Shown one piece after another: positions 4,130-61,060 of a stretch of DNA of 64,000 nucleotides. The notes beneath the pieces are model-generated. The model saw nothing but the letters and a program-made list of their open reading frames with translations. It searched no databases and was not told the origin of the DNA. Source of the stretch: Mugil cephalus (lineage: Eukaryota; Chordata; Actinopteri; Mugiliformes; Mugilidae); assembly GCF_022458985.1 (NCBI RefSeq), contig NC_061776.1, forward strand, positions 3,433,340 through 3,497,339. Reading direction: 5' to 3'. The translations under genes and the position numbers were made by a program. The stretch's first letter is position 1, and every line of letters starts with the position of its first letter.

Positions 4130-4260
4130 TCTGGATGCTTTTGTACTTCCAGGGACTCACCACTGGATGGCGCTGCTTCTCTTTGCTTCTTCATTTCAAA
4201 ATGATCAGAGCTGATCAGGTCTGTGTTTATCAAACATGTCAGAGCAGTAAAGACTGTTAA
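4130..4260 (+). repeat. Cassette-boundary repeat, copy 1
   Basis: About 100 bp containing 'ggatggcgctgcttctcttt' and 'tgatcaggtctgtgtttatc'. The same repeat occurs at 15,620-15,745 (+), 29,670-29,790 (+), 13,470-13,575 (-), 26,290-26,420 (-) and 60,955-61,060 (-). It marks the outer edge of the gamma cassettes; this copy is the 3' edge of cassette A. Confidence 0.7.
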
Positions 4261-4671
4261 AAAGTATCATCCAGAGGTTTGATGAGTCAGTGCTGATGTT
4301 TGAATGTTGATCAAATGAAGGATGTGTTTCATTAACAGTCATGAAATAGTTTCATTAGCAGCAGGTCAGTGTGTCAGTGGAAACTCAACTGTTTGAGAGC
4401 TGAACACTGAAAGTTCATGGTCCTCTAACTGGACCTGTTAGTGGATGAATCCTAATCAGTCATTAATTACAGAGGTTTCTGGTGAATAAATAACATTTAA
4501 TTCATGCACTTAGTGATTATTTCAAACTGTAAAGTCCATCTTTATTCATGAAACCCTATAAATACCCTGAACATGACACCAGCTTCAGGTGGTGATTGGA
4601 CTCAGTTCATCTCTGTGTGGGTGGAGGCTCAGAGGAGCAAAGGTTTACAGAAAACAAGAGAAAGGGAGGGG

Positions 4672-4860
4672 AGGTGATGAGTGTGTTCAGCAGCCGATAT
4701 CAATCTGTTCTCAGTGGTTATTAGGACAGAAAACAAACTGCTGACAGCCAATCAGACTTCCTTCCTGCAGCAGACGGGCTGTGTGGGTTTGTGCTCTGCA
4801 GCCTCCACACCGTTAGCTGTGGCTTTTCACTTTAATGACAGTTTCAACCACCAGCTCTGG
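4672..4860. promoter_or_regulatory. Conserved block 3' of TRGC A, candidate gamma enhancer
   Basis: This block lies about 1.0-1.2 kb downstream of the cassette A transmembrane exon and is nearly identical in all four cassettes. It contains a Myb consensus (CCGTTA, reverse TAACGG, 4,810-4,815) two bases before a RUNX-like TGTGGC (4,818-4,823), an inverted CCAAT-type box (agccaatcag) and GGAAGG/CTTCC Ets-like cores. Mammalian TRG enhancers use adjacent Myb and RUNX sites (established knowledge); activity here is inference. An open frame covers it but has no gene features. Confidence 0.45.
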
Positions 4861-5578
4861 TTAAAGAATCTTTAAAGGAAGCACCTGTGTTCTTCATCTG
4901 AGAGAGAAACACATTTACATGATTGTGATTATTTTATTGTGTTGTGTTTAAAATCTTCCATCCTCTCATAAATGTCTCCTCTCTGATAAATAGAACTTTA
5001 AAGAAGTTTAAAGTTTTTACCTGTAAAGTGTTTAAATTGATCCTGTGAGAGGATTTTCAGCTTCTATTAGAAACAATAATGCTTCCTGTTGTTGTGTTGT
5101 CATTAATCAGAACAGAACACAAGCCTCAGTGAGACAGAGACACAAACCCATGAGACAAACAAGTCATGCTGTTGTTGTGAAGCAGGCGTCCATGTTGGTT
5201 CACCTCCAGTCTCATTAGTTCACTGAGTTCTAGTTGGAAGAAAAAGTCTGAACGTCCCAATCACTTTAAATGTATCATGAGTTGACCTCATTAACCACTG
5301 AGACACATTTCTCATGGAAATTCTCTTCAAGCTTCATTTTCTCTCAGTGCATCAGTCTGTGCTTCATTCACAGGGTTCATAGACGTCACATCCAGGAACT
5401 GGAAGCAGCTTGTTACTTTATTCACTGACGTCCAAACTCTAAAGTTCAAGTGTTTGACTTGTTTTGTTAAGACACATAAAAATCAGTTGATGAAAACCAG
5501 ACTCTGGGATTGTGTCGGTTTCTCGTGTTTATTGAGTGTGTTCCAGTGAAACTAAAGAGCAGCCTGGTGGAGTCTGCA

Positions 5579-5584
5579 TTTATT
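5579..5584 (-). terminator. Poly(A) signal of TRGC A
   Basis: AATAAA on the minus strand, about 305 bp past the stop codon, inside a 3' UTR conserved with the other three cassettes (signals at 17,012-17,017, 34,517-34,522 and 59,810-59,815). Confidence 0.6.
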
Positions 5585-5888
5585 AGAAAGAAACACAAGA
5601 GCAGAAGAAACAGCTGGAAACTGATGATGATTCAGCTTCATTTTCATTATTATACAAGTCCCAGTTAAAAGTGGAAATAAACTAGACGACTAGAGAATGA
5701 ACACGTTCTAAGAGCAGATTTCTATGTGAATATATGTGTTTCTATTTACAGGACGACAATCAACACGTGAATGAACAGATACAGATTACAAAGAAGAACA
5801 TTTCAACAACATTTCTGAAGACTGATCAAAGTGATGAATGAGATGAAGTGATGAGATGTGATGGAGAGAAAAGAGGAGCAGAAAACAG

Positions 5889-6436
5889 TCAGTCAGCATG
5901 TGTGGAGCTGGTGGACGGTCCCTTGTTTCTGAGGATCATCAGCAGAGAGAGTCCACAGCAGTACACCAGACTCTTCACTATCAGCACTGTGTACTGCAGA
6001 CAGAGCAGCTTCACTTTGTACTGAGAGACATGAGGAACCTCTGAAACAGAAAAGGAGTCAAATGTTTAGAGCTGCAGTGAGAGATTGTCTGCATCACTGC
6101 TGGACACAGTCACAGAGTTCTCATTACCTTGTAGTGCTTTGGCCTCCACTGTGCCTCCCTCGTGCTCCACGGAGCAGGTGTATTTATATGTGTAGTAATC
6201 ATCTCTATCCACCAGCTTGATGGAGGCTCTGCGTCCCGACTCTCTGAGCTCCAGCTGATCTCCCTCAGCAGGGGTCAGCTCCTCCAGAGAGCCGCCCTCC
6301 TTCTGTCTTTTCCAGGAGAACTTGACCTCAGGAGGAAACATGTGTGAGGCCAGACACAGCAGAGAGCTCTTCCCCTCCAGGTGGGCTCTGGAAGCTGCTG
6401 GGTACACGCTCACCACGGGCTTCACTACCTGCTCAT
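5889..6436 (-). CDS. TRGC: T-cell receptor gamma constant region, cassette A (two exons)
   Basis: Exon 1 (6,436-6,128, 309 bp) follows a TTCAG acceptor and ends at a GTAATG donor. It encodes one Ig-C1 domain starting DEQVVKPVVSVYPAAS, with Cys28, Trp42 (FSWKRQK) and Cys88 (YTCSVEHE) forming the Ig fold. After an 87 bp intron, exon 2 (6,040-5,889, 152 bp) encodes EVPHVSQYKVK, a membrane helix containing VLIVKSLVYCCGLSLL with the intramembrane Lys expected for CD3 contact, and a short tail ending STHAD. The J splices in with phase 1 (g|at). There is no separate connecting-peptide exon, and the membrane-proximal Cys present in cassettes B and C (SQC) is Tyr here, so an interchain disulfide is unlikely. 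No frameshift or stop is seen. The transmembrane segment excludes an Ig light chain. Confidence 0.9.
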
Positions 6437-8407: not shown

Positions 8408-8463
8408 CTGTTACATACAGTTTAGTTCCAGAGCCAAAGATGCCGTAGCCCTTGCCGCTGCCA
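8408..8463 (-). CDS. TRGJ: TRG joining segment, cassette A
   Basis: A 56 bp J that reads GSGKGYGIFGSGTKLYVT in the frame set by the FGSG motif, the J bulge required for Ig V folding. It ends in ACAG|GTAAG, a good splice donor with phase 1 that matches the g|at start of TRGC. A 12-spacer recombination signal abuts its 5' end. The J lies about 2 kb from C and 4 kb from the V of the same cassette. It looks usable. Confidence 0.9.
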
Positions 8464-8491
8464 CACAGTGAAAAAGACTAATACAAAAACC
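8464..8491 (-). other. 12-bp-spacer recombination signal of J (cassette A)
   Basis: On the minus strand: nonamer GGTTTTTGT (8,491-8,483), 12 bp spacer (8,482-8,471), heptamer CACTGTG (8,470-8,464). Both elements match the consensus. Confidence 0.9.
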
Positions 8492-12412: not shown

Positions 12413-12450
12413 GGTTTTTGTTCAGGCTGCTCGCATCATTTCTCACTGTG
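12413..12450 (-). other. Long-spacer recombination signal of V (cassette A)
   Basis: On the minus strand: heptamer CACAGTG (12,450-12,444), a 22 bp spacer, then nonamer ACAAAAACC (12,421-12,413). Both elements are consensus. The spacer is one base short of 23, as in B, C and the broken D copy. Confidence 0.9.
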
Positions 12451-12887
12451 GGGAACATCCTTCCAACAGGCGCAGTAGTAGGAGGCTGAATGATGGACTT
12501 TAACTTTCTTTATCTCCAACTCCCAGTTGTTCTGTTTATTCACAGTTGAGAAATCGTCTTCCTGGGGATGACCGTAACCTTTATCAATGTAACCATTGCT
12601 TTCATCAATATAAAGAATCAATCTGAATGTTTCTTTCTTCTGGTACCAGCCTATATAATCACTACCACACTGGCCAGTTCCTTCACATCTGAAGGAGACT
12701 GTTTGACCAACTCTCCTGGTCCATGTTAACTGGTCCTGGGTCAGATCTGCTGCCATGGCAACCAGGGCTGTAGAGACACAGACAGATAGATGAAGGTTAG
12801 TGAGACAGTGTTTGTTAAAGGTGGAGTTTGTTGGAAACACTCACCTGAACACAGACAGCACAGAGCAGCAGCTGGGAGGAAAAGCAT
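12451..12887 (-). CDS. TRGV: TRG variable segment, cassette A (leader plus V exon)
   Basis: Leader exon 12,887-12,845 (43 bp) encodes MLFLPAAALCCLCS, a hydrophobic signal peptide. A 77 bp intron (GTGAG...CTACAG) follows, then V exon 12,767-12,451 (317 bp). The domain starts around LTQDQLTWTRRVGQTVSFRC and has IGWYQKK (FR2 Trp), a gamma-type FR3 with KQNNWELEIKKV, and SASYYCACWKDV at the end. Besides the canonical Cys pair there is an extra Cys in CDR1 (EGTGQCGSDY) and another in germline CDR3 (CAC). The ATG at 12,887 is preferred because it begins the signal peptide conserved in cassette C. Fully open and flanked by a good recombination signal, so it is likely functional. Confidence 0.9.
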
Positions 12888-17321: not shown

Positions 17322-18057
17322 TCAGTCAGCATGTGTGGAGCTGGTGGACGGTCCCTTGTTTGTGAGGCTCATCAGCAGAGAGAGTCCACAGCAGTACACC
17401 AGACTCTTCACTATCAGCACTGTGTACTGCAGACAGAGCAGCTTCACCCTGCACTGAGACTGGAAGGACACTGACAGACACACACACACAGATATGAATT
17501 AGTGCAAGTGTCAGATTGATCCTGTAAAGTTGTTCTAGTGTCCTCATTGGACATTGGAGCTGTCCATGCAGAGAGGCAGCAGGTGATCTTACAGTGATGT
17601 TGCTGCAGAGCTGCCAGGTCTGCTGGCTCTCTCTCTGGAGGATTGGAGGCTTCTGGAACTGGAACCTCTGAAATAGAAAAGGAGTCAAATGTTTGGAGCT
17701 GCAGGGACAATTTAGCTGTATCACTGCTGGACAAAGTCAGCAAGTTCTCATTACCTTGATTGGACTCCACTGCGTCCAACTCGTGCTCAACAGAGCAGGT
17801 GTATTTATATGTGTCGAGATCATCTCTATCCACCAGCCTGATGGAGGCTCTGCGTCCCGACTCTCTGAGCTCCAGCTGCTCTCCCTCAGCAGGGGTCAGC
17901 TCCTTCAGAGAGTCGCCCTCCTTCTGTCTTTTCCAGGAGAACTTGACCTCAGGAGGAAACATGTGTGAGGCCAGACACAGCAGAGAGCTCTTCCCCTCCA
18001 GGTGGGCTCTGGATGCTGCTGGGTACACGCTCACCACGGGCTTCACTACCTGCTCAT
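17322..18057 (-). CDS. TRGC: T-cell receptor gamma constant region, cassette B (three exons)
   Basis: Exon 1 (18,057-17,755, 303 bp) encodes the Ig-C1 domain with Cys28, Trp42 and the second Cys (YTCSVEHE). It is two residues shorter than in A, ending HELDAVESNQ instead of HEGGTVEAKALQ. Exon 2 (17,667-17,593, 75 bp) encodes a connecting peptide starting EVPVPEASNPPERE. Exon 3 (17,470-17,322, 149 bp) follows a GTCAG acceptor and encodes LSFQSQCRVK, the membrane helix with VLIVKSLVYCCG, and a tail ending STHAD. All junctions keep frame (phases 1 and 1). One connecting-peptide Cys (SQC) is present, but the exon 2 position that is Cys in cassette C is Asn here. Apparently intact. Confidence 0.88.
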
Positions 18058-20031: not shown

Positions 20032-20084
20032 CTGTTACATACAGTTTAGTTCCAGACCCATACATGTAGTAGTAGCTGCTGGGA
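20032..20084 (-). CDS. TRGJ: TRG joining segment, cassette B, with YGSG motif
   Basis: A 53 bp J that reads PSSYYYMYGSGTKLYVT in the frame that keeps GSGTKLYVT. The J-motif Phe (FGxG) is replaced by Tyr (TAT for TTC or TTT in the other three Js). The ACAG|GTAAG donor and the 12-spacer signal are intact, so it could recombine and splice. Whether Tyr supports folding is unknown. Confidence 0.85.
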
Positions 20085-20112
20085 CACAGTGAAAAAGACT
20101 AATACAAAAACC
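20085..20112 (-). other. 12-bp-spacer recombination signal of J (cassette B)
   Basis: Minus strand: nonamer GGTTTTTGT (20,112-20,104), 12 bp spacer, heptamer CACTGTG (20,091-20,085). Consensus. Confidence 0.9.
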
Positions 20113-21320: not shown

Positions 21321-21324
21321 AAGG

Positions 21325-25245: not shown

Positions 25246-25283
25246 GGTTTTTGTTCAGGCTGCTCGCATCATTTCTCACTGTG
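25246..25283 (-). other. Long-spacer recombination signal of V (cassette B)
   Basis: Minus strand: heptamer CACAGTG (25,283-25,277), 22 bp spacer, nonamer ACAAAAACC (25,254-25,246). Confidence 0.9.
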
Positions 25284-37743: not shown

Positions 37744-37780
<37 letters not shown>

Positions 37781-38833: not shown

Positions 38834-38917
38834 AAGAAGAGAAGAGAAGAGAAGAGAAGAGAAGAGAAGAGAAGAGAAGAGAAGAGAAGAGAAGACAAGA
38901 GAAGACAAGAGAAGAAA
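38834..38917. repeat. (AAGAG)n microsatellite
   Basis: About 16 5-bp units directly abutting the (TAATA)n array; the last few units have a G-to-C change ('agacaag'). Confidence 0.95.
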
Positions 38918-42200: not shown

Positions 42201-42430
42201 AAACCGGTTGGTCAAGTTTCCCCCTTGTTTCTGTTCTGGACTTGTTTTCTAAGAGTATATACCTTTTTTACATTTTATCCTTTGTATTTCGGTTTTTCTG
42301 TTCTGTCTAACAGTGTGATTTCAACACAGGTCATTAGCCTTAGCCTTTGTAGCTATTTCACAAACACACGCTTGTGTTGTGTCAGTCTGGAGTCCTAGTT
42401 CGTCTCTCTCTGATACACCGTCATATCAGA
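39241..42430. other. Unassigned region, no supported gene
   Basis: Open frames at 39,266-39,472 (one hydrophobic stretch VVVFCISFGIFVG) and 40,959-41,195 look protein-like by eye but have no recognised domain, splice context or second copy. GT-rich runs occur at 39,679-39,760. No TRGJ with a recombination signal was found here. Confidence 0.45.
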
Positions 42431-42534
42431 CAATTCTAATGAGGTGGTAGTGTGTGTGGTTTACTGCTGTTCCCGTCACCAGCATTTTGTTCGCCTGCGG
42501 GTTTTTTGTGCGGGTGCTCGGATCAATTTAGTGC

Positions 42535-43095
42535 TGTGGGACCTTTCCAGAAGGCACAAGTAGTTGGAGCTGACCCGCTGATCGATCGCCTGCTCTGATG
42601 GCGGCTTTGGATCTGCTCTCTCGGTGCTACCTCACAGTCGCTGCGCCACGTATTGCATTAGTAACTGGCACTCTTACCACGACTAAGCTACAACTCGCCC
42701 GCTGCCTGCGCCTCGTGACTCGGATCAGCTCAAATGTGTGTCATCTTTCCTCGCGCGCGCGGTTCATCTCTTTCACGACTCCCCCCCTAGGTCACGCCAT
42801 GGCGAAGCGTCGCGCAGCGCGCGCTACTCAGGCGTCACCGCCCCTCTTCCCAGGTACCAGTACACAAAGTTGTGTTCACATTGATCAACAACCGTGAACC
42901 CAAGAAAACAGTTTTAACCAGTTTTCCTGGTTCATCGTGGCGGTCCTGGGTGATCTGATGCTGGCAACAGGGTGTTGAGAACAAAGGAACAGATAGATGA
43001 AGGTTAGTGAGTTAGTGTTTGTTAAAGGTGGGAGTATGTTGGAAACAATTCACTGAACACAGACAGCAGAGAGAGGCTGTGGAGGAACAAGGCAT
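42535..43095 (-). pseudogene. TRGV pseudogene (cassette E), minus strand
   Basis: The leader remnant (ATG 43,095-43,093, to about 43,052) and the following intron match TRGV leaders with several indels. The V exon start is visible at about 42,990-42,900 ('tggtcctgggt' region). The end and the decayed signal (heptamer and nonamer both altered) lie at about 42,490-42,540. The middle, about 42,590-42,850, is replaced by GC-rich sequence with no resemblance to V. It faces away from the broken V at 47.9 kb, mirroring the B/C head-to-head pair. Confidence 0.55.
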
Positions 43096-43739
43096 TTTTG
43101 TGTGGTGGTGATATTCTCTGCGTGAACCCCGTGGGAGATGTGCGAGTAGATGCAGCTGAGGCCCACAAGGTCAGGTGTGAAATGAGACGAGGACACGTTG
43201 GGGGGGGTTATCTTGCAGTACTCAAAGTCCCATATGCCTGAAGCCACAGATGAGACCGGGCTGATGATGATTTAATGCTCAGATCAAGCTGGTATGTTGT
43301 CCTTTCAATGGTCTTGATTTGTATTGACAGAGATGAAAAACAAATCTGGGGTGTAATGATGCTGAAAGATCAAAAAATTCTTGTTCCCACAAAAACATTA
43401 GGATGGGTTGGGGGTGACTTTGTAAAAAGATGTTCTTGTTGTTGAAGTGTTTAGATGGAACAATTACAAAACTACAAATCCAGAAAACACTACAATATAT
43501 TAACTTATATCCGCGCCCGCCTCCTCTCTCGCCATTGAACTATAATATATAAATATATAAAAATAATAAAATGTATTTTGTGATTGATTTTTTTTTTGTT
43601 TATATTAGAATATTTTAAAGTGATGAATCATTAAAAATCCTTATCAGATAGGTTATTGTTTAATATTCATTCCAATGAAATTTTTTATCTCTCAGATTCA
43701 TAGAGGAGGAAATTTGGAAATGTTCTAAAAAAAGATAAT

Positions 43740-46700
43740 TATTTTGTATTTTGGGCTTTGGACATTAGAGACATGATCATGCTTGATAATTGTGTAGATG
43801 AATCGGCAAAGAGAAGAATCGCCATAATGGGAGAGGCTGAAAGTAAAAGGCATCGGCACACGGGCTGCTGCTCAGACCAGACTCTACGCTCTCTAACTGT
43901 TATGAACTGTGTCTCCATGAGCAAAAACAATGTCCCATAAATACACAGAAGACACAACCATCTGAGGATTGGATGGACTTCTACAGAGAACAAATAAATA
44001 ACATACATCAACGCATGGAGAGAGGAAACATCTTGTTATCAAATAGAAAAACAAAAGAATCATTCTGGTTTACTGAGGAAAGCCCCCCTCTGCATCTCTC
44101 AAATGCACGGGGACTGAAGTGGATAGCAGGAGTCGACAAGTTCTGGTCTTAAGGTGTCAGATGACTGTGCTGAGCCATAACACCAGTGCAACTAGTGACG
44201 ATGGCCAGATTCCCATTGTAAGCCCCTACACAGAACCTTAAGAGGACTCGTTTTATAAAGTATTTGCATTGGTACCATGCGATTCAGAAGGATATTTTAA
44301 GTTTCTTTTAGTAGTTTTTAAATGTCTTAATGGTCTGGGACCTTTTTATTTGTTGACCTACTTTTTTTTTACGTATCGAAACCTCATGAACCTGATGTAA
44401 TCTGGTACGGATTGTTAACCAACCTCAAGGTCTATCTAGGATTCAAAGGGTTGCAGCATTCAGTTTTATCGGAACCGACTGTGGAACAGGCTGGAGACAA
44501 GCTCAGGGCCTAAGTGGACTGTTGATACTTTAAAAAGAGGCTCAAAGACTTAGAATCTTTTTATTAATTCTTTTGTATGATTTGAACTTCCTGATAACTT
44601 TGTTTTTATCTGATTTGATGAATTTTATTTAATTGACTTTTTTTTATTATTATCACCAAGTCTTATTGGTAAGGCGACGTTTTTTTAATTTATTTCTTTA
44701 ATTTTTATAGTTTATTTTAGTTTTCTTACCAAATATTTGGTGTTTTAGTATCTTTAGTTCTAGGAGCCTGATTTCTGTCAGCTGTGGGAGGAGCGCCCCC
44801 GCTTGTTGGGTCACTCGCATCTGTTCCTGTTATCTTGGGTGTGATTTTACGGCAGAGACCCTATGGTTGTATGGTTTATGTCTGACTTTTATTTTGTGAA
44901 TATGTGTTATCGTTTCATGTTTTATTTTTGTTTAAGTTTGGAATTTCTCTGTTTTGCTCTCTCGTGTGTTAGGTCACAATCTTAATCTAACCTCACAACA
45001 ACAAATCACCCACGGTGATTCCTGTGTGTCCTTGATTGTTCATTGGGTCTCACCTGTGTCATTGCCCTGAGCGGTTTTCACTGTGTCTTGTAAGCCCTCA
45101 GCCCTTGTGTAAATGTAGCCCTGTTTCTTTGCTCACTGTGCGTTATTTTATGTCTCTTTCTGGTTTGAAAAGTTCCTGTTTTTAATTGCATTGTTGTGTG
45201 TGTGAAATGTTTTTTTCTTGTTATTTTATTTTTTTTTTTGGATATAGGAACTAATTAATAAAGAAAAAAAAAAAATAAAATTTGATTTGGGGCATCAGGG
45301 GCTGGAAAGGTTTTTTAAAAAAATTTTTCATTTTTTTATATATGTTCATTTATTTTTAAATGCCTGATGAGCGAGGAACCTTGGCTTGGCTTATAGGTCC
45401 ATGACTAAAGTTGTTCGATTACATAAGACAGTCTTAAAGATGAATTGCCAAGAGTTTCCAGAGTTCCAGCTACTTGTGTGTGTTTTTGATCTAAGTGCTA
45501 AACTCGGAAGGAAGATTTTGATGTGAGTGATGCTTTTTTCGGATCTGGTGTTGGTCACTTGTGTTCTAGTGGTATGAGGATGAGGATGTTATTTTGATTA
45601 TACGATGTTTCTTATGTTTCTCAGATGTACTTTGTCATTGTGATGTTGATTGGTGATTAAAGGTGATGTGATAGCTTATTCCTTTGAATTCGAAGATTGT
45701 GTACTGGGTGATGGTCTCAGTCTTTGGACAGTTGGGTTCATTTGTTGAGGGGGCATCTTGTTTGTATCTTATGATGAATTCACAGGAGTGTCAGTGATTG
45801 AATGTTACATTTCTTGTGTGAGTTGTAAGGAGAGAGGGTTCAGAGGAGCTGTCCAGTGATGAAGTGAGGGAATGGTTTGTCAGTGGGCCCTTGAACAAGG
45901 AAATTCTGACTAATCTGAAGTTTTTTGAACAATTTCTTAGGATGCTGTTGGTTGATCTTTCTGATTTACAGTGTACTGATTGATAGAGTTCATTGAGATT
46001 GTATCAATCTGCTGGAGACATTGGGTAGTGTTTTCTGTGTGTTTTGTACGTCAATGTTATGGCTGTTGATTGGGAATGATGGATTTTGATCCTGATCGAT
46101 CGATCAAAACTTACAGCAGATTTTTTTAATGTTGGAGCCAATTTCAACTGCTTTCTATACAGACTGTATTTTTTGCACTAGTTAACGGTTGAAGAATCGG
46201 TTCCATTGGAGGTCAGAGTGTATGAACATGTGATTCATGGAAGTAAGAGAAGGAAAAAGATAATCTTGCTGTGTTCAACAGATGTATTTCTATCCACATT
46301 CCAGCTAGCGCTGCGTGGATAGGAGTATGGGAAATGTACCAAGGGCACATACATCAGGGGGCGGAGATGGGGAGGAAGAAAAAAAAAAAAAAGTGCAATG
46401 ATCTTTATTTTGTTTTTTTATAATAAAATAATTTAAACCATACATTAATGGTATGCAGTGCAAAGCTAATTTAAATAATCAAAATTGCAATTGTACATCC
46501 ATGTAAAGTGAATATGTTACGTTAATTTTCATAACTCAGCATTTCATTTGGCTATTTTGCTGAGTTTACTGCTTCTTTGCATTTGCTCAATCAGAATTTT
46601 ACTGTTATGAAAATAAGATTGAATTAATCTAATTTGCACTTTTGTATAAATTGAATTGGTTATTATATTGTACAGCAATAGTGATGAATTCTAGAATTAA

Positions 46701-47200
46701 CTTTTAATATTGACTCTAACAACCATCGATGTCACTGACTCGTGCTCTCTTCAGATACGCTGTTTTAAACCTGTCCTGCAAATTGGGCATCTACAGGTCT
46801 CCGCACTTAATCCAGCTTCATGCGTTCTCTGTAGCTCACATCTGATGAAACCAGTGATGTGCATCATGAAATCAATGGAATGTCGTAATAGACCTGACTG
46901 GCCATCTCCTTCACTTACGATGAGGTACGAACAGGATTGTTTCTAAGGTTCCATTTCAAACTGAAATCACAAACATTCCCTAAAAAAAGAGGCACGAAGG
47001 TGGTAAATGATTTTGCTTTTTAACAGACATTGGGACAATGGAGAAAAAAATCAGAAAGCAGGGCCTGTCGATGTACTCAAAAAATGGATGATAGCTTGCA
47101 TGTTATTAATAAGTGTTTTAATGATTATATGGATTTCATTGTTTATCTATATAAATTAAAGAAATGTATAAGGTCACAGCCTATTCAGTTTCTAACAGGA
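43740..47200. repeat. Corrupted inverted copy of 26.4-29.8 kb
   Basis: Contains in order the LINE ('ggatggacttctacagagaa' onwards, then tail at 44,450-44,560), the LTR-like fragment (44,870-45,320), the spacer (45,330-46,310) and the hAT fragment (46,320-47,130), all reversed and broken by small indels. Confidence 0.7.
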
Positions 47201-47813
47201 TAGGCCGCTGCTATCTTTGCTTCAGTTCAGTGCTGATAGGTCGGTGTTTATCAAAATGTCAGAGCAGGAAATCTCTTCTAACTGAACAGAATCTCTCGAG
47301 GTCCTGGCTTGATTCTACTTTTTAGGAGTTGAAGTCAAACATTTTGATTTCTTTTCACTTGTCAATTTATATGGATTATTATCGTTTCATGAGTTCTCTG
47401 TGTTTAGTGATTACTTCTAACTTTTAAGAGTCATTGAATGATTCTGTACAAAGTAAAATGTTTTAGGAAACGTCCTTTTAATAGAAGAGTATTTACAGAG
47501 AAAACAGTCTGTGAACATAAAGTCCACCAACCTGAATGTGTTTTGTGGGAACATGATATAGTTTTTTGTATTTCTGTTCTTGTGACAAGATTTTTTTCAT
47601 TGTGTCAGATTCATAATCAAAGGTACATGGATAAGGACTCAGCAGATTGATTGAGCTGTCATCATCAGAGCCGCTCTATTGTGGGCTGCAGGGGCTGATG
47701 GGAGCTTTGGGACCCTGTAGAAGTGGCCGTCTAATGTCACAGTGTCCTTGTTGGGGGCCTCAGCTGCATCAGAGCTCCACTTTCACAGGTTCACAGAGGT
47801 TACTCCACACACA

Positions 47814-48248
47814 AATTGCTTTTCTCAGTGCTGCTCTGTGCTGTCTGTGTTAGGTGGTGTTTCCAACAAATACACCTTTAACAAAACTGTTCACTAACTT
47901 ATCTATCTGTCTGTGTCTTACAGCCTCGCGGCGCGCCATGGCAGCAGAGCTGAACCAGGACCAGTTAACATTGACCAGAGAGTTGGGTATTTCAACAGTC
48001 TCCTTCAGATGGGGATGGAAACTGTCCGGTGTTATGATAATATATATATTATTGGTACCGAAGAAGAAACATTCAGTCTGATTACTCTTATTCTTGAGGG
48101 ATAGTGGTGAATTATTGTCAGGTTACTGATATCATCAGGAATATGGATTTCTCAAGCTGTGTATAAACAGAACAGTTGGGAGTTATAGTTAAAGACAGTC
48201 AAAGTTGATAATTCGTGCTCCTACTACTGCGCTGTGTGAGAGAGTTAC
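47814..48248 (+). pseudogene. TRGV pseudogene (cassette D), plus strand
   Basis: The leader remnant (about 47,814-47,853) has lost its ATG and its donor. The V exon remnant (47,924-48,248) starts after a TTACAG acceptor with MAAELNQDQLTLTR and is soon frameshifted. Traces of 'ggtaccgaagaagaaa', 'gctgtgtataaacagaacag' and 'tcctactactgcgctgtgtg' follow the order of TRGV B, its closest match. An odd GGCGCGCC replaces the 'ggttgc' stretch before the internal ATG. Indel density suggests consensus error; the true allele may be intact. Confidence 0.65.
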
Positions 48249-48285
48249 CACATGAGAAATGATGTGAGCCGCTTGAACAAAAACC
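48249..48285 (+). other. Damaged long-spacer recombination signal (cassette D V)
   Basis: Heptamer reads CACATG (one base lost), 22 bp spacer, nonamer ACAAAAACC (48,277-48,285) intact. Confidence 0.6.
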
Positions 48286-48299
48286 AACGATTGAACAGA

Positions 48300-51200
48300 T
48301 GTTCAAAAGTGTTTGTGAAGGAAGAGGCGTTAACCAGGGTACTATTTCACCTCATCTCAGACAGAGTCCCAAAAATTTTACTGAAGCTGAGGGAGATTCT
48401 TTTTTACTGCTCTCACTATTTATTTGACATCAGATTTATTATGTTGTTAGCAGATATTTTCAACCGGTTTAGAAAAAAAGATGAAACAACAAGAGAAGAA
48501 CGAAAAGAGCAAAAAAATACAAAGTCTAATCAAAAGAATTCAATGAAAGAGCAAAAGGAACAAAAGGATAATTTTCAAAGGACTTTTGAAAGTCAAAGTT
48601 TGAATAGAATGAATGATTTCAGAACAAATTGTTCAGTGTAGATGAAGGCCCTTGCTTCATTACATTTGATGTTAGTTGTTTCTCAATCTGACCACTATCT
48701 TACTGTTAATCTAAAGTGTTACGTTTACAAGCCTCTTATCAGATTAAAGTTTTTTTATTTGTAGTTCCTGTCCGTTACTATGTTTACATTATTAGATTTT
48801 TACATTTCTTTTGTCCACGTCAAATATGTGACAACTCTCCTTTTCCGGCATGATGAAGCTATAGAATACACAGTAAAAACGTAAACACAACAGGAGGGAG
48901 GGAGAGATGCAAGTTTTTGAGTGGTAATAAAAGTGCGAGTAGTGGTGCAGTTAGAGGCCACAGGGGAGGTTAACCTTATTGATTATGCTCAGGAAAGGAC
49001 AAAAATAAAAAACTTAAAAACTTGAGTCTAGACTCCCTTGGGCGCACAATACGTGAATTGGGGAGAGTTGGGGGAGAGTTTTTTGGTTATAGGAAATGAA
49101 ACTGATTAAATGACAAAAGATATGTTGCTTTTAAACAAAATATTAAGAAAAATATATAGTGGAATTGTGCATGTGGACATAGGACTCCAGTTTCCCCTGC
49201 AAATCAGTGGGGGTACAAGAGGTAAGAAAATGATTAAATTTAAAAATTTACTCTTTAGAGTTTAAGTGTCAGGCGTGATCAATGAGTACTAGATGCAGAG
49301 ATATATTGAATAAACAAAGGTGATTTTATTGGATTCTCCGGAGATCCACCACAGAGAGACAAACAAATGGCTACAAAACCTTGCAGAAACTTGACTATGA
49401 GAAGAAAAACTTCCAAGAAGGAGGGAAAACTCAAATAAAGAAACAAATGAAAAAAAAACCACAAAAACACTGAATAGGAGGAAAACAACGGACTAAGGAT
49501 CTAAACTAAGGAAAGAAATTTAAACAACAAAAACTCTATTTCGAGAGGAATAATGGGTTACTTGGAACTTCTATGGGTTTGTAGACATTGAAAACACAGG
49601 GCGCGGGTGGTGGTGTGGACGATAACACTTGGCACAAGGACAAGGGGAACACAGATACATTTACAATGGAGGGAAAAATGGGTCTGGTGGAAACACTAAG
49701 GGCATTCAGGACTGAAGAAATGAGGTCGGGGAAGAGAGTGACCTGAGAAACGTGAGGAGATTATATTTTCAAAATAAAAAGGAAATGTCAGGAACAAAAC
49801 AAACCCAAGATCAGACACCCTCAACAGGTGAGGGTCTGTGTGTGGTGTTGTGACATTAATCTCTATCCAATCAGTGTAAAATAAAAATGAAATCGGAAAC
49901 AAAATATTAAACACTGAGCTTTGTTCTTCCTAGAGTAATTGATATAATTATTGATATTTTTTCCAATTAGTTATTTAAAATGACACTCTACAGTGTAATA
50001 GTGTTTCATTTTTATTTCTCCAGTGTTATTTTATTTTATATATGTAGGCTGCTTTATTGGAATTGATATATGTTTTTCACTATATTAAGAATAAATAGTC
50101 AGCCCAACAATGGTTACAGTAAACAAATGCTTTAATGCTCACCAGATGAAGCAATAAGGAAACATATGAGAGCTGTGCATTAATCAAATGACATGTATGT
50201 CAAAAGGCCTGGGATAAGGCAGGGTTGGTCAACATGAAAGAAAAATAACAATCTTGCTTTCTACCTTGTTACTTGTATGATGAAATGTTTTGAAAAAGTG
50301 AATGTACATAAAGGCAAATGTGAGCAGCAATAATTTTTCATGCATTTTCAGAACAGACTCAGTCTTGTTAATAGAGGGGGAATTCACATTCAACTGCACC
50401 AAAAATAAGTAAGTTAAAGTAAAATTCATTGTGTTTAGCTATTTAACCTTTAGTTTGACCTGTGTATGACGATAATTGATGGTAGATTTTCATCTTCTCA
50501 TGGACAGTGTCTTCATCAGCAGTGTTTTTAAAACAGCAGCAGCTGCTTCACGTCCTCATCAGATGAACTTTGCAGAGTGAAGAGGTTCTGGGGTTGACCT
50601 GGTCCACACTTGAGACCAAAAAAAGTTTACTTGCTCCATATAAATTAATGAGGATCACGAACTCTAGAACGAAATTCGGTGCATGTACACTTCTAATATT
50701 TTTTCCTGTTATTTCTACAAAATTGGTGCATGGTCATTGAACAACCTCACTCGCCCTACGTCATCAGTGAGGAAGCGTTATTGAGTCACATTTGATTCTG
50801 CACGTGCTGTGTGCGCTTGCACTGTTTTAGCTCCGTTAAAATCATTGTTGTAAACGTTTTTTCTGTATAAGAAATGTGTGTAACTCATGTGTTGTGTTTA
50901 CACAACCCACCTGTCCTCTGTAGACCTTGTTAATCTCACGGTTTCTTTCAGTTTAATCAGCTTTGGTGTATTTAGTGGTTAATATGGATTCTTTCTCTCC
51001 TGTGCTTCTCCTTCTCTCTCCTGCTCGTGTTGACACAGGTTTTAGTCTCCTCTGCTCTTTAGTGTTAATGGTACTGTATTTAAATGTCAGTTTATTTTTG
51101 TTTGTTTGGAGGCGAGGCTCTCTGAACTGGAAGCACGGCTCGGCTCCATGCAAATCCCAATAGTAGCCTGGCCTGTAGTGGTGTGGGTGCGAACAAGCGC

Positions 51201-53440
51201 AGCTCCCGTTGCATAGCTCATGAGTGTCCCTGCAAGCTCGTTGCAGTAGCTCCTGCTAGCTGACCCCCTGCGTCTCTATGTCTCTGTCCCTCTGTGTGTC
51301 TCTGTTCCTCTGTGTGTCTCTGTCCTCTGTGTGTCTCTGTTAACTTTGTGTGCGTGATGTGTTTGTATCTCTTCTCTCTAGGTTTATTTATACCAGAAAT
51401 TTCGCTTGTCTTTGTTTTTGAGAGACAATTTTTTCATTGACCCTGGTGTTGAAATTGGAAAGTTATTGTGCATTTTTTCTAGATGGTGAGAATAGCTTTT
51501 GTAGATAAGAGGTTGAGCCGATCTATGGACATAGTGTTCCTAATGATTGTATTTGATTTTTAAGGTAGATAACACCTCTTGACTTGATGTTGTAGTTGGT
51601 GTGGTGTGATGATGTTGTTTGAGAAGGTTAAGTTTAGTGACATTGGTTTCTCATGGTTGTTTTCTTCTTCAAAACTGATAGAGAGCAGTGCTCTTTGCAA
51701 TCTGATAACTCCTCATTATCGTAGATCAGGGAAAGTTCTGTTTTAGTCTGGTCTTGTCAATCAGGGATAGGTTCTCAACCGTGGTTTAAGACATGCTGAA
51801 TCTGGGAACTTTCTGTGTGTTGTTTGGAATAAAGTTCCTTGCAAGGAGTTGTGGCGTGATGAGGTGCTTTGTGAAAGAAAAACCTTCTTTTAGAATGGCT
51901 CATGATGTGTTAATACTATGTGATAATATAATTTTAAAATGGGCTGAAACAAAATTGGGTTTCACATGTTCACTACAATTAATGTTTAAATAGCAGTTAG
52001 ATAGTGTAATAAAAAAAAAAAAATAAATTGTGTTTTTGGTTAATGTTTATTGAATATTTGTTTTGTCAATGGACACTATACATTTGAGTTGGATACTGTA
52101 TTAAGGGGGCGAGTTTTTTTTTAGTTGTGTTTTGATTATGGTCTTGGTGTTCATGTCTGTGTGTGTAAGAATTGTAGTGTTACTCAGTGCAAATGGTGTG
52201 CTGACGCGCGCGCAGCACACAATGTTCTGTTTTCTTTAGTGGGTGGCTCTGGAAACAGGTCTCCCCTGTCATCTATCCTCAGCAATTAAGGAACAGCCTC
52301 CCTCAGATCAATACATACGTTTTTTGAGTCAGATTGTGAAATGGTTAGGGAATGTATTAACCAAGCAAAACATTTTGTTATAATTATGCGTTATAATTTT
52401 TCATTAAAAATCAAGATAAATCAATTATTTGAAGAAGATGAATATAAGATTTAAGGGCTAATATAATTCGACGCCGCTGAGAATTAAAAGCACGGTATGC
52501 TAGATAATATTGCATTTAACTTACTAATAGCCTGCATGGGTTAATGAAGCTGGGGGATTTCTGCGATTGAGAAGAATCGATCGTGTCTTTTGGAGTTGAT
52601 TATAGGAATGTCTACTGTGCATGATTTAATGGAACAAGATAGGAAAACAAACAGAAAGCTTCGTCTTCCAGCATTTCAATAGCCTCCAGCCTTTTCTTGT
52701 ATGGCATAAATGCTTCATGTTTAGGATGGTCTGGAAAACACTTCACAGGATCATTCTTGTGCTAACAGACTGGTGTTGATGCACAATGTTGAAGTTCCAA
52801 ATGTTGATGATGCACTTGGAAGTTGTAGTGCGGCCACCATTTCATCTAGCATGAGTTCCGCGCGCGCGCCGCGCGCTCCTAACGACAGCAAATACCCCAT
52901 GTGGTTTATTTTAAAAGTGATATGAGGGATGTGGGCGGTTGCTGTGATACCAGGTTAATGCGGGCATAACAGTGAATGTAGTGAGTCGTTTGCAATAGAT
53001 GTCTGTACTTTCGTGCACTCCTCCAGTGGCACCTCATCACCGATGCCCTTCATATGCATTTTTTTTCTTGTCCTCAGGAAGGATGCAGTGAAGGCTATCA
53101 AATAAGGCACTGGCTATTAAATCCACACAGCTGTTGGGTAGTGCTTTGAATTCTATTTGAAACGCCTTTGTATATTGTTCTTGTTGCGTCCATCGATGTA
53201 ATTAAGTACCAGGGATAGCTGAAGTGTGTGGAAATGTGGGTAGTTTCATCAGTTGTTACAGATAAAAACTCAGCTGCCTTTATTCATCCACCATCTGTTC
53301 TCTTAGAAATGCAGCAAAAAGGCCAGGAGCTGAGTTTGCTTTTTATAGGTCGCATTTTATCACAAGTTGTTGTGGTTCAAAAGTATGTGTCATCAGAGAA
53401 AGGTTCTTTGGTATTTTGGAATATAACTCTTTAGTCTGAG
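48300..53440. other. Corrupted spacer, no supported gene
   Basis: 48.3-50.1 kb mirrors 11.0-12.4 kb with many indels. 50.4-53.2 kb is mostly not matched elsewhere in the window; it has a (TGTGTGTC)n-like stretch at 51,270-51,350 and short GC-rich islands at 52,203-52,220 and 52,860-52,880. A minus-strand stretch at 52,770-52,630 reads protein-like (PDHPKHEAFMPYKKRLEAIE) but is short and unidentified. Confidence 0.45.
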
Positions 53441-53449
53441 GTAGATTTT

Positions 53450-54130
53450 TGTTGGTGTGAACAAGGATCAATTTTGGGTCGAATACGGCATCTGTTATCA
53501 GGAAAAATCTAATAATCTTTATGTAAATGATCTTATCCTTAATTTTACTAATTGCTGTTTGTGGGTGTGTACTTTTAGAAGCAAACTACAGTGTATTAAA
53601 TTATGGAAATTATAAAATGAATCATTGTGAAAAATGATAACATTAACAGAGTCTCTAGCTCAACCCTCACTGTTTCAATCCCATGGATTCTGCCATTTTC
53701 AAGTAATAGTCTTATGCAAATTTATGTTTTCATGTATAATCCATCCTCAAGCTACTTCCCAACATGTTTTGCTCTACATACCAGTTCTCAATTCAGATAC
53801 ATGATACTTTTTTTTTTTTAAATTTTGATTTTTTAGATCACAAACTTTCATTAAGATAAGGGGTGCCATTATTAGTAATCCTTACAGCTCCATTAGAGAA
53901 AAGTAACACTGCAATTCAGAAGCAAACAATACATTTTTATAGTACAATTTTTGTGAAATACAAATTCGTATCAATCGCCCCTCCCCCGCTCGCACTCGCC
54001 ATACATTTAAATTTTATCTGGGATAAATGTAGTGGAACTACTCAATAAAGCCACAGAATGGCATTTCTAGTTTGGTGAACTGGTTTTTGAAAAAACTCGT
54101 TAAATAGATTGGAGGTGTCCACAGGGTGCG
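53450..54130 (+). mobile_element. Corrupted copy of the 9,990-10,790 LINE fragment
   Basis: Inverted copy: 'gatcaattttgggtcgaata', 'gttatcaggaaaaatct', 'ttatgttttcatgtataatc' and 'ggataaatgtagtggaacta' follow the order of the minus strand of 10,730-10,060, with indels and a GC-rich intrusion at 53,980. Confidence 0.6.
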
Positions 54131-55529
54131 ACAATCACCACGGTTTTTTTAGAGGTTTCATGAGGGTAATATTAGTACAAATGTGGATGTTTAATGTAAT
54201 ATGTAAAAGAGTAAATGCTTGTTTAAGGACTGAAGTCATTTACTGAAATGAGTATGTGTTAGGGTTGGGGTTTGAGAGCAGAAATAGACGATGAGTCACC
54301 AACGGTTGTAAGTATTGCAGGACGTCGTCAATGCCTTGGGCTGTTTGTGCTACGGGGCAAATAATGCAAAGTTAGTAACGTTATGTATTAAAATCTACAT
54401 TCAGCTTTATTGTCTGTCGTTTGACCTGTGATTGTGTGTTTATGTGAACTTTGTGGGCATTTGTGGGTTTAGGGTCAAACCATGTAGTTAATTCTTTGTA
54501 CTCTGTTGTTGCTATAAGGAGATTTTGGTACAATCTGCAGTCTGTATGGGATGTAGGACATAATTTATACTTGTTGAATAGGTAATAACTCAAGACTAAC
54601 TAGACTAAACAGAGTTAAGTAAGTGTCCCAGTGTACCATGCAAGTGTCGGTGTCGCTGATTTTTTTTTTTGACTAGTATGTAGACACTGTTGAAGACTCC
54701 TAGTCAGTTTACCCCCCTATTTTATTTTACACCACAAAATTCTAAACTTGCTTATTGATTCTGCTTTTTAAAACCTTATGATTGCTGTTTAGACAAATAA
54801 AGACAAAGATTGATATTTCTGTTGTCTGTGTGGATGTTCAGTTTAGCTTGGTAATATGTATCCTTTCTTTTATCAGTTGTCCTTTTTTTTGTGCTGTTGA
54901 CTGCTATTTGCATTGATTGTTTTAAAAGCTGAATTTTGTTTAGGGAGGACACCTGGACATGCGCAGATAAGGGTCTTTTCGTTTCCTTCTGCAACATTCC
55001 ACCTCAACTTTGATTATGTTCACTTATCATGTTTGTTGTTTGTATGATATTGATTGGCTCGATATACTTTTTATTGCGTGCTGTTAAATGAAAATAAATG
55101 ATATGGGTTTTTTTTTAAAATAAATAAATTAAATCACACCAGGGTCAGTTAGAGAGGTAGGTCTAGGGATGGCTGCTGATCTTGTCCTGCTCCATGGACA
55201 CGTTGAGGAGGAGTCTGTCCTTCAGGGACATAAGAATTAACAAAGCATCACTGTTTGATGAACCAACTGTGACTGTGTGTCATTACTGATAATATTTATT
55301 ATTTATTCCACATCATTACTATATATGTTATAACTAAATATGTTTATATGTGTTTCTATGTAATGATGCTACTGGACACTGAATGTCCAACAGAAAATCT
55401 GATGACCAAAACAGATGTTGACCTGCTGGTGGCGCTAGATAAAAAGTCCAAATCAACAGTCAGTTAATGAAGTTGATCCTCTGGGACCAAGAATGTGTAG
55501 AAAGGCTCTCAATAGACTCCAACATACTG

Positions 55530-56912: not shown

Positions 56913-56940
56913 GGTTTTTGTATTAGTCTTTTTCACTGTG
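56913..56940 (+). other. 12-bp-spacer recombination signal of J (cassette D)
   Basis: Nonamer GGTTTTTGT (56,913-56,921), 12 bp spacer, heptamer CACTGTG (56,934-56,940). Confidence 0.9.
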
Positions 56941-56995
56941 TGGCAGCGGCAGGGCTACGACATCTTTGGCTCTGGAACTAAACTGTATGTAACAG
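56941..56995 (+). CDS. TRGJ: TRG joining segment, cassette D
   Basis: A 55 bp J reading WQRQGYDIFGSGTKLYVT with ACAG|GTAAG donor. Closest to cassette A J (GYGIFGSG). Intact. Confidence 0.9.
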
Positions 56996-58952: not shown

Positions 58953-59504
58953 ATGAGCAGGTAGTGAAGCCCGTGGTGAGCGTGTACCAGGCAGCATCCA
59001 GAGCCCACCTGGAGGGGAAGAGCTCTCTGCTGTGTCTGGCCTCACACATGTTTCCTTCTGAGGTCAAGTTCTCCTGGAAAAGACAGAAGGAGGGCGGCTC
59101 TCTGGAGGAGCTGTGACCCCTTGCTGAAGGGAGAGCAGCTGGAGCTCAGAGAGTCGGGACGCAGAGCCTCCATCAGGCTGGTGGATAGAGATGATCTCTA
59201 CACATATGAATACATCTGCTCCGTCGAGCATGAGGGAGGCACAGTGGAGGCCAAAGCACTACAAGGTAATGAAAACTCTGTGACTGTGTCCAGCAGTGAT
59301 ACAGATAATCTCTCACTGCACCTCTAATCATTTGAATCCTTTTCTGTTTCAGAGTTTCCTCATGTCTCTGAGTACAAAGTGAAGCTGCTCTGTCTGCAGT
59401 ACACAGTGCTGATAGTGAAGAGTCTGGTGTACTGCTGTGGACTCTCTCTGCTGATGAGCCTCAGAAACAAGGGACCATCCACCAGCTCCACACATGCTGA
59501 CTGA
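58953..59504 (+). pseudogene. TRGC: T-cell receptor gamma constant region, cassette D (exon 1 frameshifted)
   Basis: Exon 1 (58,953-59,265, 313 bp) is four bases longer than in A. Insertions of TG, T and A within 59,112-59,131 create a TGA at 59,114-59,116 right after GGSLEEL and shift the rest. The remaining Ig-C1 sequence (LVDRDDLYTYEYICSVEHE) is otherwise preserved. Exon 2 (59,353-59,504, 152 bp) is intact: EFPHVSEYKVK, helix with VLIVKSLVYCCG, tail STHAD. Like A it lacks the connecting exon and has Tyr in place of the membrane-proximal Cys. J, splice sites and 3' UTR are all sound, so either the gene died recently or the insertions are assembly errors near the noisy block. Confidence 0.8.
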
Positions 59505-59809
59505 CTGTTTTCTGCTCCTCTTTTCTCTCCATCACATCTCATCACTTCATCTCATTCATCACTTTGATCAGTCTTCAGAAATGTTGTTGAAATGTTCTTC
59601 TTGTAATCTGTATCTGTTCATTCACGTGTTGATTGTCGTCCTGTAAATAGAAACACATTATTCACATAGAAATCTGCTCTTAGAACGTGTTCATTCTCTA
59701 GTCGTCTAGTTTATTTCCACTTTTAACTGGGACTTGTATAATAATGAAAATGAAGCTGAATCATCATCAGTTTCCAGCTGTTTCTTCTGCTCTTGTGTTT
59801 CTTCTTTCT

Positions 59810-59815
59810 AATAAA
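59810..59815 (+). terminator. Poly(A) signal of TRGC D
   Basis: AATAAA about 305 bp past the stop, matching cassette A. Confidence 0.6.
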
Positions 59816-60349
59816 GGAAAGAAAATGAAGCTTGAAGAGAATTTCCATAGAGAAATGTGTCTCAGTGGTTAATGAGGTCAACTCATGATACATTTAAAGT
59901 GATTGGGACGTTCAGACTTTTTCTTCCAACTAGAACTCAGTGAACTAATGAGACTGGAGGTGAACCAACATGGACGCCTGCTTCACAACAACAGCATGAC
60001 TTGTTTGTCTCATGGGTTTGTGTCTCTGTCTCACTGAGGCTTGTGTTCTGTTCTGATTAATGAGGACACAACAACAGGAAGCATTATTGTTTCTAATAGA
60101 AGCTGAAAATCCTCTCACAGGATCAATTTAAACACTTTACAGGTAAGAACTTTAAACTTCTTTAAAGTTCTATTTATCAGAGAGGAGACATTTATGAGAG
60201 GATGGAAGATTTTAAACACAACACAATAAAATAATCAGTTTTATTTAACTGTAAACACAAATGTGTTTATAATATTAAATGTAAATGTGTTTCTCTCTCA
60301 GATGAAGAACACAGGTGCTTCCTTTAAAGATTCTTTAACCAGAGCTGGT

Positions 60350-60540
60350 GGTTGAAACTGTCATTGTGCCATTAAAGTGAAAAGCCACAGCTAACGGTGT
60401 GGAGGCTGCAGAGCACAAACCCACACAGCCCGTCTGCTGCAGGAAGGAAGTCTGATTGGCTGTCAGCAGTTTGTTTTCTGTCCTAATAACCACTGAGAAC
60501 AGATTGATATCGGCTGCTGAACACACTCATCACCTCCCCT
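60350..60540. promoter_or_regulatory. Conserved block 3' of TRGC D, candidate gamma enhancer
   Basis: Reverse-orientation copy of 4,672-4,860. GCCACAGCTAACGG at 60,384-60,397. Confidence 0.45.
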
Positions 60541-60954
60541 CCCTTTCTCTTGTTTTCTGTAAACCTTTGTTCCTCTGAGCCTCCACCCACACAGAGATGA
60601 ACTGAGTCCAATCACCACCTGAAGCTGGTGTCATGTTCAGGGTATTTATAGGTTTTCATGAATAAAGATGGACTTTACACTTTGAAATAATCACTAAGTG
60701 CATTAATTAAATGTTATTTTATTCACCAGAATCCTCTGTAATTAATGAGTGATTAGGATTCATCCACTAACAGGTCCAGTTAGAGGACCATGAACTTTCA
60801 GTGTTCAGCTCTCAAACAGTTGAGTTTCCACTGACACACTGACCTGCTGCTAATGAAACTATTTCATGACTGTTAATGAAACACATCCTTCATTTGATCA
60901 ACATTCAAACATCAGCACTGACTCATCAAACTGATCATTTATAGTAGCTTTTAT

Positions 60955-61060
60955 CCATCTTTTCTGCTCACATATTTGAAAAATACAGACCTGATTTTTG
61001 ATTATTTTGAAATGAAGAAGCAACGAGAAGCAGCGCCATCCTGTGGTGAGTTACTGGAAG
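60955..61060 (-). repeat. Cassette-boundary repeat, copy 6
   Basis: Minus-strand copy at the 3' edge of cassette D ('agaagcagcgccatcctgtg'). Confidence 0.7.

What the first reader, a model, noticed from the sequence alone, without database searches (positions are those of the whole stretch)
4130..61060. TRG locus made of complete V-J-C cassettes in opposite orientations
Two cassettes read leftwards (A, B) and two rightwards (C, D) from a head-to-head V pair. Each has its own V, single J and C. Joining within a cassette would be deletional. Joining a V of one arm to a J of the other would have to invert the DNA between them. Mammalian TRG loci also use repeated cassettes (for example mouse), but a divergent, near-palindromic arrangement is unusual and could allow both arms to rearrange independently on one chromosome.
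Basis: partly seen in the sequence, partly recalled or inferred. Interest (0 to 1): 0.8.

Follow-up and report, generated by a model that had tools for sequence, protein, structure and literature searches.

The report
Fish T-cell receptor gamma array, mixed orientation
This is a stretch of a grey mullet's gamma T-cell receptor genes, repeated as small V-J-C sets that point both ways; sets that point the other way are already known in mouse, cat and cod, and over a quarter of the stretch looks like low-quality sequence, so it is mostly ordinary.

Summary
The window is part of the TCR-gamma (TRG) locus of Mugil cephalus or a very near relative. Clean sequence holds three complete V-J-C cassettes, A(-), B(-) and C(+), with a head-to-head V pair (B/C), plus the J and C of a fourth, D(+). 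Seven recombination signals are perfect consensus (12-bp spacers at J, 22-bp at V).

The finding needs three corrections. (1) About 36.7-55.3 kb looks like unpolished long-read sequence: 54-70 small gaps per kb in self-alignments, against 1-15 between clean parts. V_D lies wholly inside it. (2) A fifth cassette, E(-), was missed: C_E (36.5-37.1 kb) is tail-to-tail with C_C, V_E (42.5-43.1 kb) head-to-head with V_D. Orientation is therefore - - + - +, not two arms. (3) The right side ends at a 500-N gap, and 11 of 12 listed mullet TRG models match no intact cassette here.

Within-cassette joining should be deletional and cross-orientation joining inversional; that is inferred, no repertoire was seen. 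Inverted TRG cassettes are in print (mouse TRGC2, cat cassettes 4-5, one partial cod mini-cluster), and inversional joining between clusters is shown for zebrafish IgL. New member of a known kind, interest 0.3.

The parts
12845..12887 (-). V_A leader exon, 43 nt, open
12451..12767 (-). V_A exon, open, Pfam V-set 2.6e-08
12413..12450 (-). V_A RSS, CACAGTG-22-ACAAAAACC
8464..8491 (-). J_A RSS, 12-bp spacer
   Evidence: motif reads on + strand; J codes on -
8408..8463 (-). J_A, FGSGTKL
6128..6436 (-). C_A exon 1, open, Pfam C1-set 2.5e-07
5889..6040 (-). C_A exon 2: short connecting piece and transmembrane with lysine, stop
25684..25727 (-). V_B leader exon, one T longer than A and C (44 nt), frame broken as written
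25284..25606 (-). V_B exon, open
25246..25283 (-). V_B RSS, 22-bp spacer
20085..20112 (-). J_B RSS, 12-bp spacer
20032..20084 (-). J_B, YGSG in place of FGSG
17755..18057 (-). C_B exon 1, open
17322..17667 (-). C_B exons 2 (17593-17667, longer hinge) and 3 (17322-17470, transmembrane), open to the stop
30530..30967 (+). V_C leader and V exon (30648-30967), open
30968..31005 (+). V_C RSS, 22-bp spacer
32441..32468 (+). J_C RSS, 12-bp spacer
32469..32520 (+). J_C; first codon after the heptamer is TGA, removable by end trimming
33420..34209 (+). C_C exons 1 (33420-33728), 2 (33861-33935) and 3 (34060-34209); exon 1 has a one-base loss then a one-base gain, and one extra base stands before the usual stop
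36478..36600 (-). C_E transmembrane exon, clean: 101-102 of 105 bases as in A-D, no gap against A, B, D
36741..37106 (-). C_E exon 1, noisy: 260 of 299 bases as in A, in 23 ungapped blocks
39167..39268 (-). tentative J_E (score 56 vs best of five shuffles 50); 2.06 kb from C_E exon 1, near the 1.96-1.98 kb of A, B, D
42488..43128 (-). V_E leader, exon and RSS, noisy
47788..48300 (+). V_D leader, exon and RSS, noisy, frame broken
36650..55260 (.). stretch with raw-read-like error profile (ends approximate; 37.5-42.9 and 50.1-53.3 kb have no self-alignment, so there it rests on composition and position)
56913..56940 (+). J_D RSS, 12-bp spacer
56941..56995 (+). J_D, FGSGTKL
58953..59504 (+). C_D exon 1 (58953-59265, small insertions break the frame) and exon 2 (59353-59504)
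62547..63046 (.). 500-N gap

Best explanation
A segment of the TRG locus of Mugil cephalus (or a very near relative), built by duplication and inversion of V-J-C cassettes into an array of mixed orientation, at least A(-) B(-) C(+) E(-) D(+) here. Shown from sequence: identity of the gene segments, perfect 12/22 RSSs, orientations of A, B, C and of J-C of D, and the head-to-head V_B/V_C pair. Inferred: RAG joins V and J within a cassette by deletion; V and J of opposite orientation can join by inverting the DNA between them; J and C are then spliced to give a gamma chain. D's V and most of E lie in a stretch that is probably unpolished long-read consensus, so their coding state is unknown, though their presence and orientation are probably real.
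For: RSS scan: 7 perfect sites of 9 above threshold, all 7 at V or J ends, 0.01 expected. Cassette A translated from the window is identical to M. cephalus P0001 over the first 118 of 120 V residues and the last 167 residues (J-C); they differ only at the V-J junction, where P0001 is itself a gene model. Sea bass 'T-cell receptor gamma chain precursor' P0045 is 64% identical over the full query. CX6PX6WX45C and transmembrane Y and K six apart match the sea bass TRG description (spacing counted by hand). The noisy stretch repeats the head-to-head V pair with its spacer: 24.88-30.71 kb is collinear with 48.66-42.91 kb. V_D and the C_D tail are each nearest to the same mullet model, P0002, of 12.
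Against: No reads, transcripts or second assembly were available; the genome search did not complete. The D/patch junction is odd: about 0.5 kb corresponding to A 8735-9241 is represented twice in direct order (55.0-55.5 and 56.16-56.67 kb). Clean D has more gaps against A and B (27 and 23 openings) than A against B (4). C_C, C_D and the V_B leader have frame-disrupting indels, which could be real pseudogenization. No model equal to B was listed among the best 120 of 967 (best 81%). J_E is weak.
Confidence: 0.82

Rival explanations
1. The inverted right side is an assembly artefact: the other haplotype, or a fold-back (missed-adapter) read, placed in reverse.
For: The low-quality stretch starts at about 36.65 kb, close to the centre of the palindrome. 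The right contig ends at a 500-N gap. The D junction repeats a roughly 0.5-kb piece. The published M. cephalus assembly used PacBio subreads, wtdbg2 and Illumina polishing. Mullet model P0002 resembles D in both V and C, so D could be an allele of a cassette that lies elsewhere.
Against: Clean D differs from A by 102 substitutions in 3678 columns and from B by 85 in 2973, as much as A from B (76 in 2964) on the same clean contig, so it is paralog-like. In the patch V_D carries the B-specific state at 5 of 16 sites and V_E the C-specific state at 8 of 32 (V_E alignment poor). The patch has a 3.2-kb insert absent from A, with a likely 8-bp repeat at its ends. C_E's clean exon is not a copy of C_C (102/105 with a gap). 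None of this touches A, B, C, which are clean.
Confidence: 0.13
2. The 36.7-55.3 kb stretch is an old, decayed duplicate (true pseudogenes V_D, V_E, C_E) and not sequencing noise.
For: Patch deletions outnumber insertions (146 to 104 in the longest pair), whereas raw PacBio reads usually have more insertions (recalled). V_E's exon centre is almost unalignable. E's J-C intron gave no self-alignment to the others.
Against: Gap openings are 54-70/kb in 12 of 12 patch pairs whatever the partner, against 1-15/kb in 20 of 20 clean pairs. ts/tv is 0.38-0.61 in 7 of 7 patch pairs vs 0.63-1.67 in 9 of 9 clean pairs examined. CpG o/e is 0.525 against 0.297 and 0.253. One-base deletions are not enriched in homopolymers (for example 11 of 116, background 0.20). 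The change is a step within one gene: C_E transmembrane exon 101-102/105 with at most one gap, exon 1 about 140 bp away 260/299 in 23 blocks.
Confidence: 0.15
3. These are immunoglobulin light-chain genes, as the automatic names of many of the nearest database proteins say.
For: Many of the listed matches are named 'immunoglobulin lambda-1 light chain-like'.
Against: The C gene ends in a membrane-spanning exon with lysine (YTVLIVKSLVYCCGLSLLM), which light chains lack (recalled). Sea bass TRG precursor matches over the full length, and a published sea bass C-gamma primer matches C_C exactly.
Confidence: 0.02

Closest known systems
Mouse TRG locus (TRGC2 cassette inverted)
   Same: V-J-C cassettes, one J per cassette, one whole cassette inverted (passages of PMC7349638)
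   Different: One of four inverted there; here three against two of five, with head-to-head V pairs
Cat TRG locus (cassettes 4 and 5 inverted)
   Same: Multi-cassette, two inverted; intra-cassette joins preferred over inter-cassette (passages of PMC6945721)
   Different: V-J-(J)-C units with several J; mammalian hinge exons
Atlantic cod TRG locus
   Same: Teleost; single V, J, C mini-clusters of about 4 kb; one reversed (one section of PMC13149839)
   Different: Six complete mini-clusters all forward; only a partial one, without C, is reversed, and the inversely oriented TRGV1-7 is used infrequently
Zebrafish IgL clusters
   Same: V-J-C clusters with mixed polarity; inversional joins between clusters shown in cDNA (passages of PMC3014032)
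   Different: Light-chain genes; V often opposed to its own J and C
Channel catfish TRG locus
   Same: Teleost, four V-J-C cassettes over 151 kb (passages of PMC8656973)
   Different: Several V or J in some cassettes; the words inverted and inversion do not occur in the paper's main text

Membership tests
TCR gamma (TRG) locus | V with 23-type RSS, J with 12-type RSS | tested here: met
   3 V-RSS with 22-bp and 4 J-RSS with 12-bp spacers, all perfect
TCR gamma (TRG) locus | No D segment (no element with RSS on both sides) | tested here: met
   All 7 perfect sites belong to a V or a J; the 2 weaker hits lie apart at 42.3 and 59.2 kb; the noisy stretch could hide one
TCR gamma (TRG) locus | J motif FGXG | tested here: met
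   3 of 4 J; J_B has YGSG
TCR gamma (TRG) locus | C domain CX6PX6WX45C and transmembrane lysine | tested here: met
   Counted by hand on cassette A
TCR gamma (TRG) locus | Full-length similarity to a cloned teleost TRG chain | tested here: met
   P0045, sea bass TRG precursor, 64% over the full query
TCR gamma (TRG) locus | Flanked by AMPH and STARD3NL | not tested
   The window was not searched for these two genes; the whole-genome search did not complete
TRG cassettes in inverted orientation (mouse, cat kind) | Whole V-J-C cassettes on both strands of one locus | tested here: met
   A, B (-) vs C (+) in clean sequence
Inversional inter-cluster rearrangement (zebrafish IgL kind) | cDNA joining V of one cluster to J-C of an oppositely oriented cluster | not testable with these tools
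   No transcripts available
Immunoglobulin light chain | C gene without membrane exon (recalled) | tested here: not met
   Transmembrane exon present in A, B, C, D, E

The most novel reading that the evidence does not exclude
The mullet TRG array is a large imperfect palindrome in which inversional joins between oppositely oriented cassettes are frequent in gamma-delta T cells, keeping V, J and C segments on the chromosome for a second round of joining (receptor editing). Between V-J-C clusters this has been shown, in what I read, only for zebrafish IgL.
Probability: 0.2. Interest if true: 0.5.

Novelty: new member of a known kind. Interest (0 to 1): 0.3.

Why it matters
If confirmed by accurate reads, it adds a percomorph fish to the TRG loci with inverted cassettes and gives a natural test of whether gamma chains use inversional joining between cassettes. 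It is also a warning: over a quarter of the window is probably unpolished sequence inside a genome assembly, so pseudogene and cassette counts from it are unsafe, and many public gene models of this family are named as Ig light chains.

Tried and rejected
IgL identity: rejected on the membrane exon and the TRG match. Simple allelic inverted duplicate: judged unlikely because D is as far from A and B as they are from each other. Fold-back of the left arm: judged unlikely. Nanopore origin of the noise: considered because deletions exceed insertions; dropped because one-base deletions are not enriched in homopolymers and the published mullet assembly used PacBio. Which mullet assembly the window is from was not established. 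Positive selection as the cause of fast exon divergence: not supported; pS and pN are about equal (0.057/0.057 in C exon 1 A-B; 0.145-0.176/0.111-0.168 in V). A fuzzy-pattern search timed out and was replaced by local alignment. Searches whose listings gave nothing used: assembler consensus errors, mullet with TRG words. Passages of PMC8559430, PMC10322711, PMC12698447 and PMC2904447 were seen and not used. No promoter or enhancer search was done and no structure was predicted.
Full report
WHAT IT IS. The window holds TCR-gamma gene segments of a percomorph fish. Cassette A, translated from its exons, is identical to the M. cephalus database protein P0001 over the first 118 of 120 V residues and over the last 167 residues (J and C); the two differ only at the V-J junction, where P0001 is itself a gene model. 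Sea bass 'T-cell receptor gamma chain precursor' (P0045) is 64% identical over the full query. The C domain has CX6PX6WX45C and the transmembrane segment has Y and K six residues apart, as described for sea bass TRG (section 5 of PMC3485050; spacing counted by hand on the sequence). Of 10 published sea bass primers tried with up to 3 substitutions, one (CG3, C-gamma) matched: exactly in C_C at 33873-33895 and with 3 substitutions in C_B. Many of the listed database relatives carry the automatic name 'immunoglobulin lambda-1 light chain-like'; the membrane exon argues against that.

SEGMENTS AND SIGNALS. A scan for RSSs found 9 sites above threshold. The 7 perfect ones are the 12-spacer signals of J_A, J_B (-), J_C, J_D (+) and the 22-spacer signals of V_A, V_B (-), V_C (+). 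A first-order simulation expects 0.01 perfect sites per sequence (200 runs). V exons A, B and C are open and hit Pfam V-set; C exon 1 of A and B hit C1-set. As written, the V_B leader is one base too long, C_C exon 1 has a loss followed by a gain and one extra base stands before its usual stop, and C_D exon 1 has small insertions and an in-frame stop. J_B has YGSG; J_C starts with an in-frame TGA that end trimming could remove.

ORIENTATION IN CLEAN SEQUENCE. A and B read left, C reads right, and V_B and V_C lie head-to-head about 4.8 kb apart. C_C is followed at 36.5 kb by the clean transmembrane exon of another C gene, C_E, on the minus strand, tail-to-tail (101-102 of 105 bases as in A-D). 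This fifth cassette was not in the finding.

THE LOW-QUALITY STRETCH. Of 35 self-alignments of at least 300 columns, the 20 between clean parts have 1-15 gap openings per kb. Two involving a repeat at 1-564 have 20 and 23. The 12 that involve 36.7-55.3 kb have 54-70, and one at the right boundary has 37. In 500-base bins of the stretch that have a self-alignment the rate is 53-76 (42 in the last bin); 37.5-42.9 and about 50.1-53.3 kb have none, so there the case rests on composition and position. ts/tv is 0.38-0.61 in 7 of 7 such pairs and 0.63-1.67 in 9 of 9 clean pairs examined. CpG observed/expected is 0.525 inside, 0.297 to the left and 0.253 to the right, and homopolymer runs of five or more are 9.3 against 5.7 and 4.9 per kb; however, 1-4 kb also has high CpG. 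The left edge falls inside C_E: its transmembrane exon is clean and its exon 1, about 140 bp away, is 260/299 in 23 blocks against A. The published M. cephalus assembly used wtdbg2 on PacBio subreads, Illumina polishing with POLCA and 3D-DNA scaffolding (parts 1 and 2 of 3 of PMC9247318). A low-depth consensus stretch would fit; that 3D-DNA writes 500-N gaps is recalled. Against a plain raw PacBio read, deletions outnumber insertions (146 to 104). I give 0.15 to genuine decay instead.

WHAT THE STRETCH HOLDS. 24877-30713 (V_B, spacer, V_C upstream) is collinear in reverse with 48656-42913. V_D (47.8-48.3 kb, +) and V_E (42.5-43.1 kb, -) are recognisable down to their RSSs (scores 117 and 74, best of five shuffles 36), and J_E is tentative (56 against 50). 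So the two head-to-head V pairs B/C and E/D are mirror images about a centre near 35-38 kb, and the order is A- B- C+ E- D+. V_D is nearest to mullet model P0002 among 12 mullet and 3 window V genes, 62 of 98 residues with 11 frameshifts, and the C_D tail is also nearest to P0002 among the 12 (43/44), which supports V_D and C_D being one cassette. The right junction is unresolved: about 0.5 kb corresponding to A 8735-9241 appears twice (55.0-55.5 kb and 56.16-56.67 kb), and over the last 250 bases the patch is equally close to A, B and D (232/246, 234/246, 233/247).

ARTEFACT OR REAL. Clean D differs from A by 102 substitutions in 3678 columns and from B by 85 in 2973, while A and B differ by 76 in 2964, so D behaves as a paralog and not as an allele of A or B. 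It has more gap openings against A and B (27, 23) than they have between them (4), so it too may hold uncorrected errors. V_D has the B-specific base at 5 of 16 sites and V_E the C-specific base at 8 of 32 (the V_E exon aligns poorly), and the patch has a 3.2-kb insert absent from A, so it is not a fold-back copy of the left arm. Still, the linkage of D to the rest depends on this stretch, and the right contig ends at a 500-N gap.

EXTENT. Twelve M. cephalus models were in the best 120 (of 999), all listed with a contig of 29.17 Mb. P0001 is cassette A. The other 11 match no intact window V exactly; their best V identity to V_A, V_B or V_C runs from about 72% to 86%. P0002 could be D's allele or sister. 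The window is thus probably part of a larger array. Other percomorphs also have many models: Sarotherodon galilaeus shows 12 with locus tags between 013356 and 013390.

HOW IT LIKELY WORKS. Geometry gives deletion for V_A-J_A (3.9 kb), V_B-J_B (5.1 kb) and V_C-J_C (1.4 kb); deletion across cassettes for V_B-J_A and V_C-J_D; inversion for V_A or V_B with J_C or J_D and for V_C with J_A or J_B; and loss of the coding joint on a circle for V_A-J_B. Cat TRG shows a preference for joins within a cassette, and cod uses its inversely oriented TRGV1-7 infrequently, so I expect mainly within-cassette joins. No transcripts were seen.

KNOWN OR NEW. Inverted TRG cassettes are in print for mouse and cat and a reversed partial one for cod. 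Inversional joins between V-J-C clusters are shown for zebrafish IgL. None of the listed titles of the searches describes a mullet TRG locus; these cover open-licence papers, only part of each result is listed, and only named the mullet. New member of a known kind.

Noticed in passing
window V exons and C exon 1 versus flanks: V exons differ by 12-17% between A, B and C while their upstream 320 bp differ by 0.6-1.6%; C exon 1 differs by 3-9% while the J-C intron differs by 1.3-2.0% and the 3' part by under 1%. pS is about equal to pN, so flanks seem homogenised, or exons exchanged, rather than simple positive selection.
   Followed up: partly
5889-6040, 59353-59504 versus 17322-17667, 33861-34209: Two C types: A and D have a short hinge in two C exons, B and C a longer hinge with an extra exon.
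   Followed up: partly
50136-53336: 3.2-kb insert in the noisy copy, absent from A, with a likely 8-bp repeat (TTAAAGCA) at both ends, perhaps a hAT-like element.
   Followed up: partly
21322-23984: Reverse-transcriptase fragments (Pfam RVT_1, one of two hits above the cut-off) in the V_B-J_B spacer.
   Followed up: no
1-564, 14583-15115, 61576-62087: A repeat about 80% identical at three places, one inverted.
   Followed up: no
38001-39000: Very A+T-rich (27% GC) yet CpG observed/expected 1.35, the highest of the 1-kb bins.
   Followed up: no
database proteins listed: Many percomorph TRG-like chains are named as immunoglobulin light chains in public gene models.
   Followed up: no
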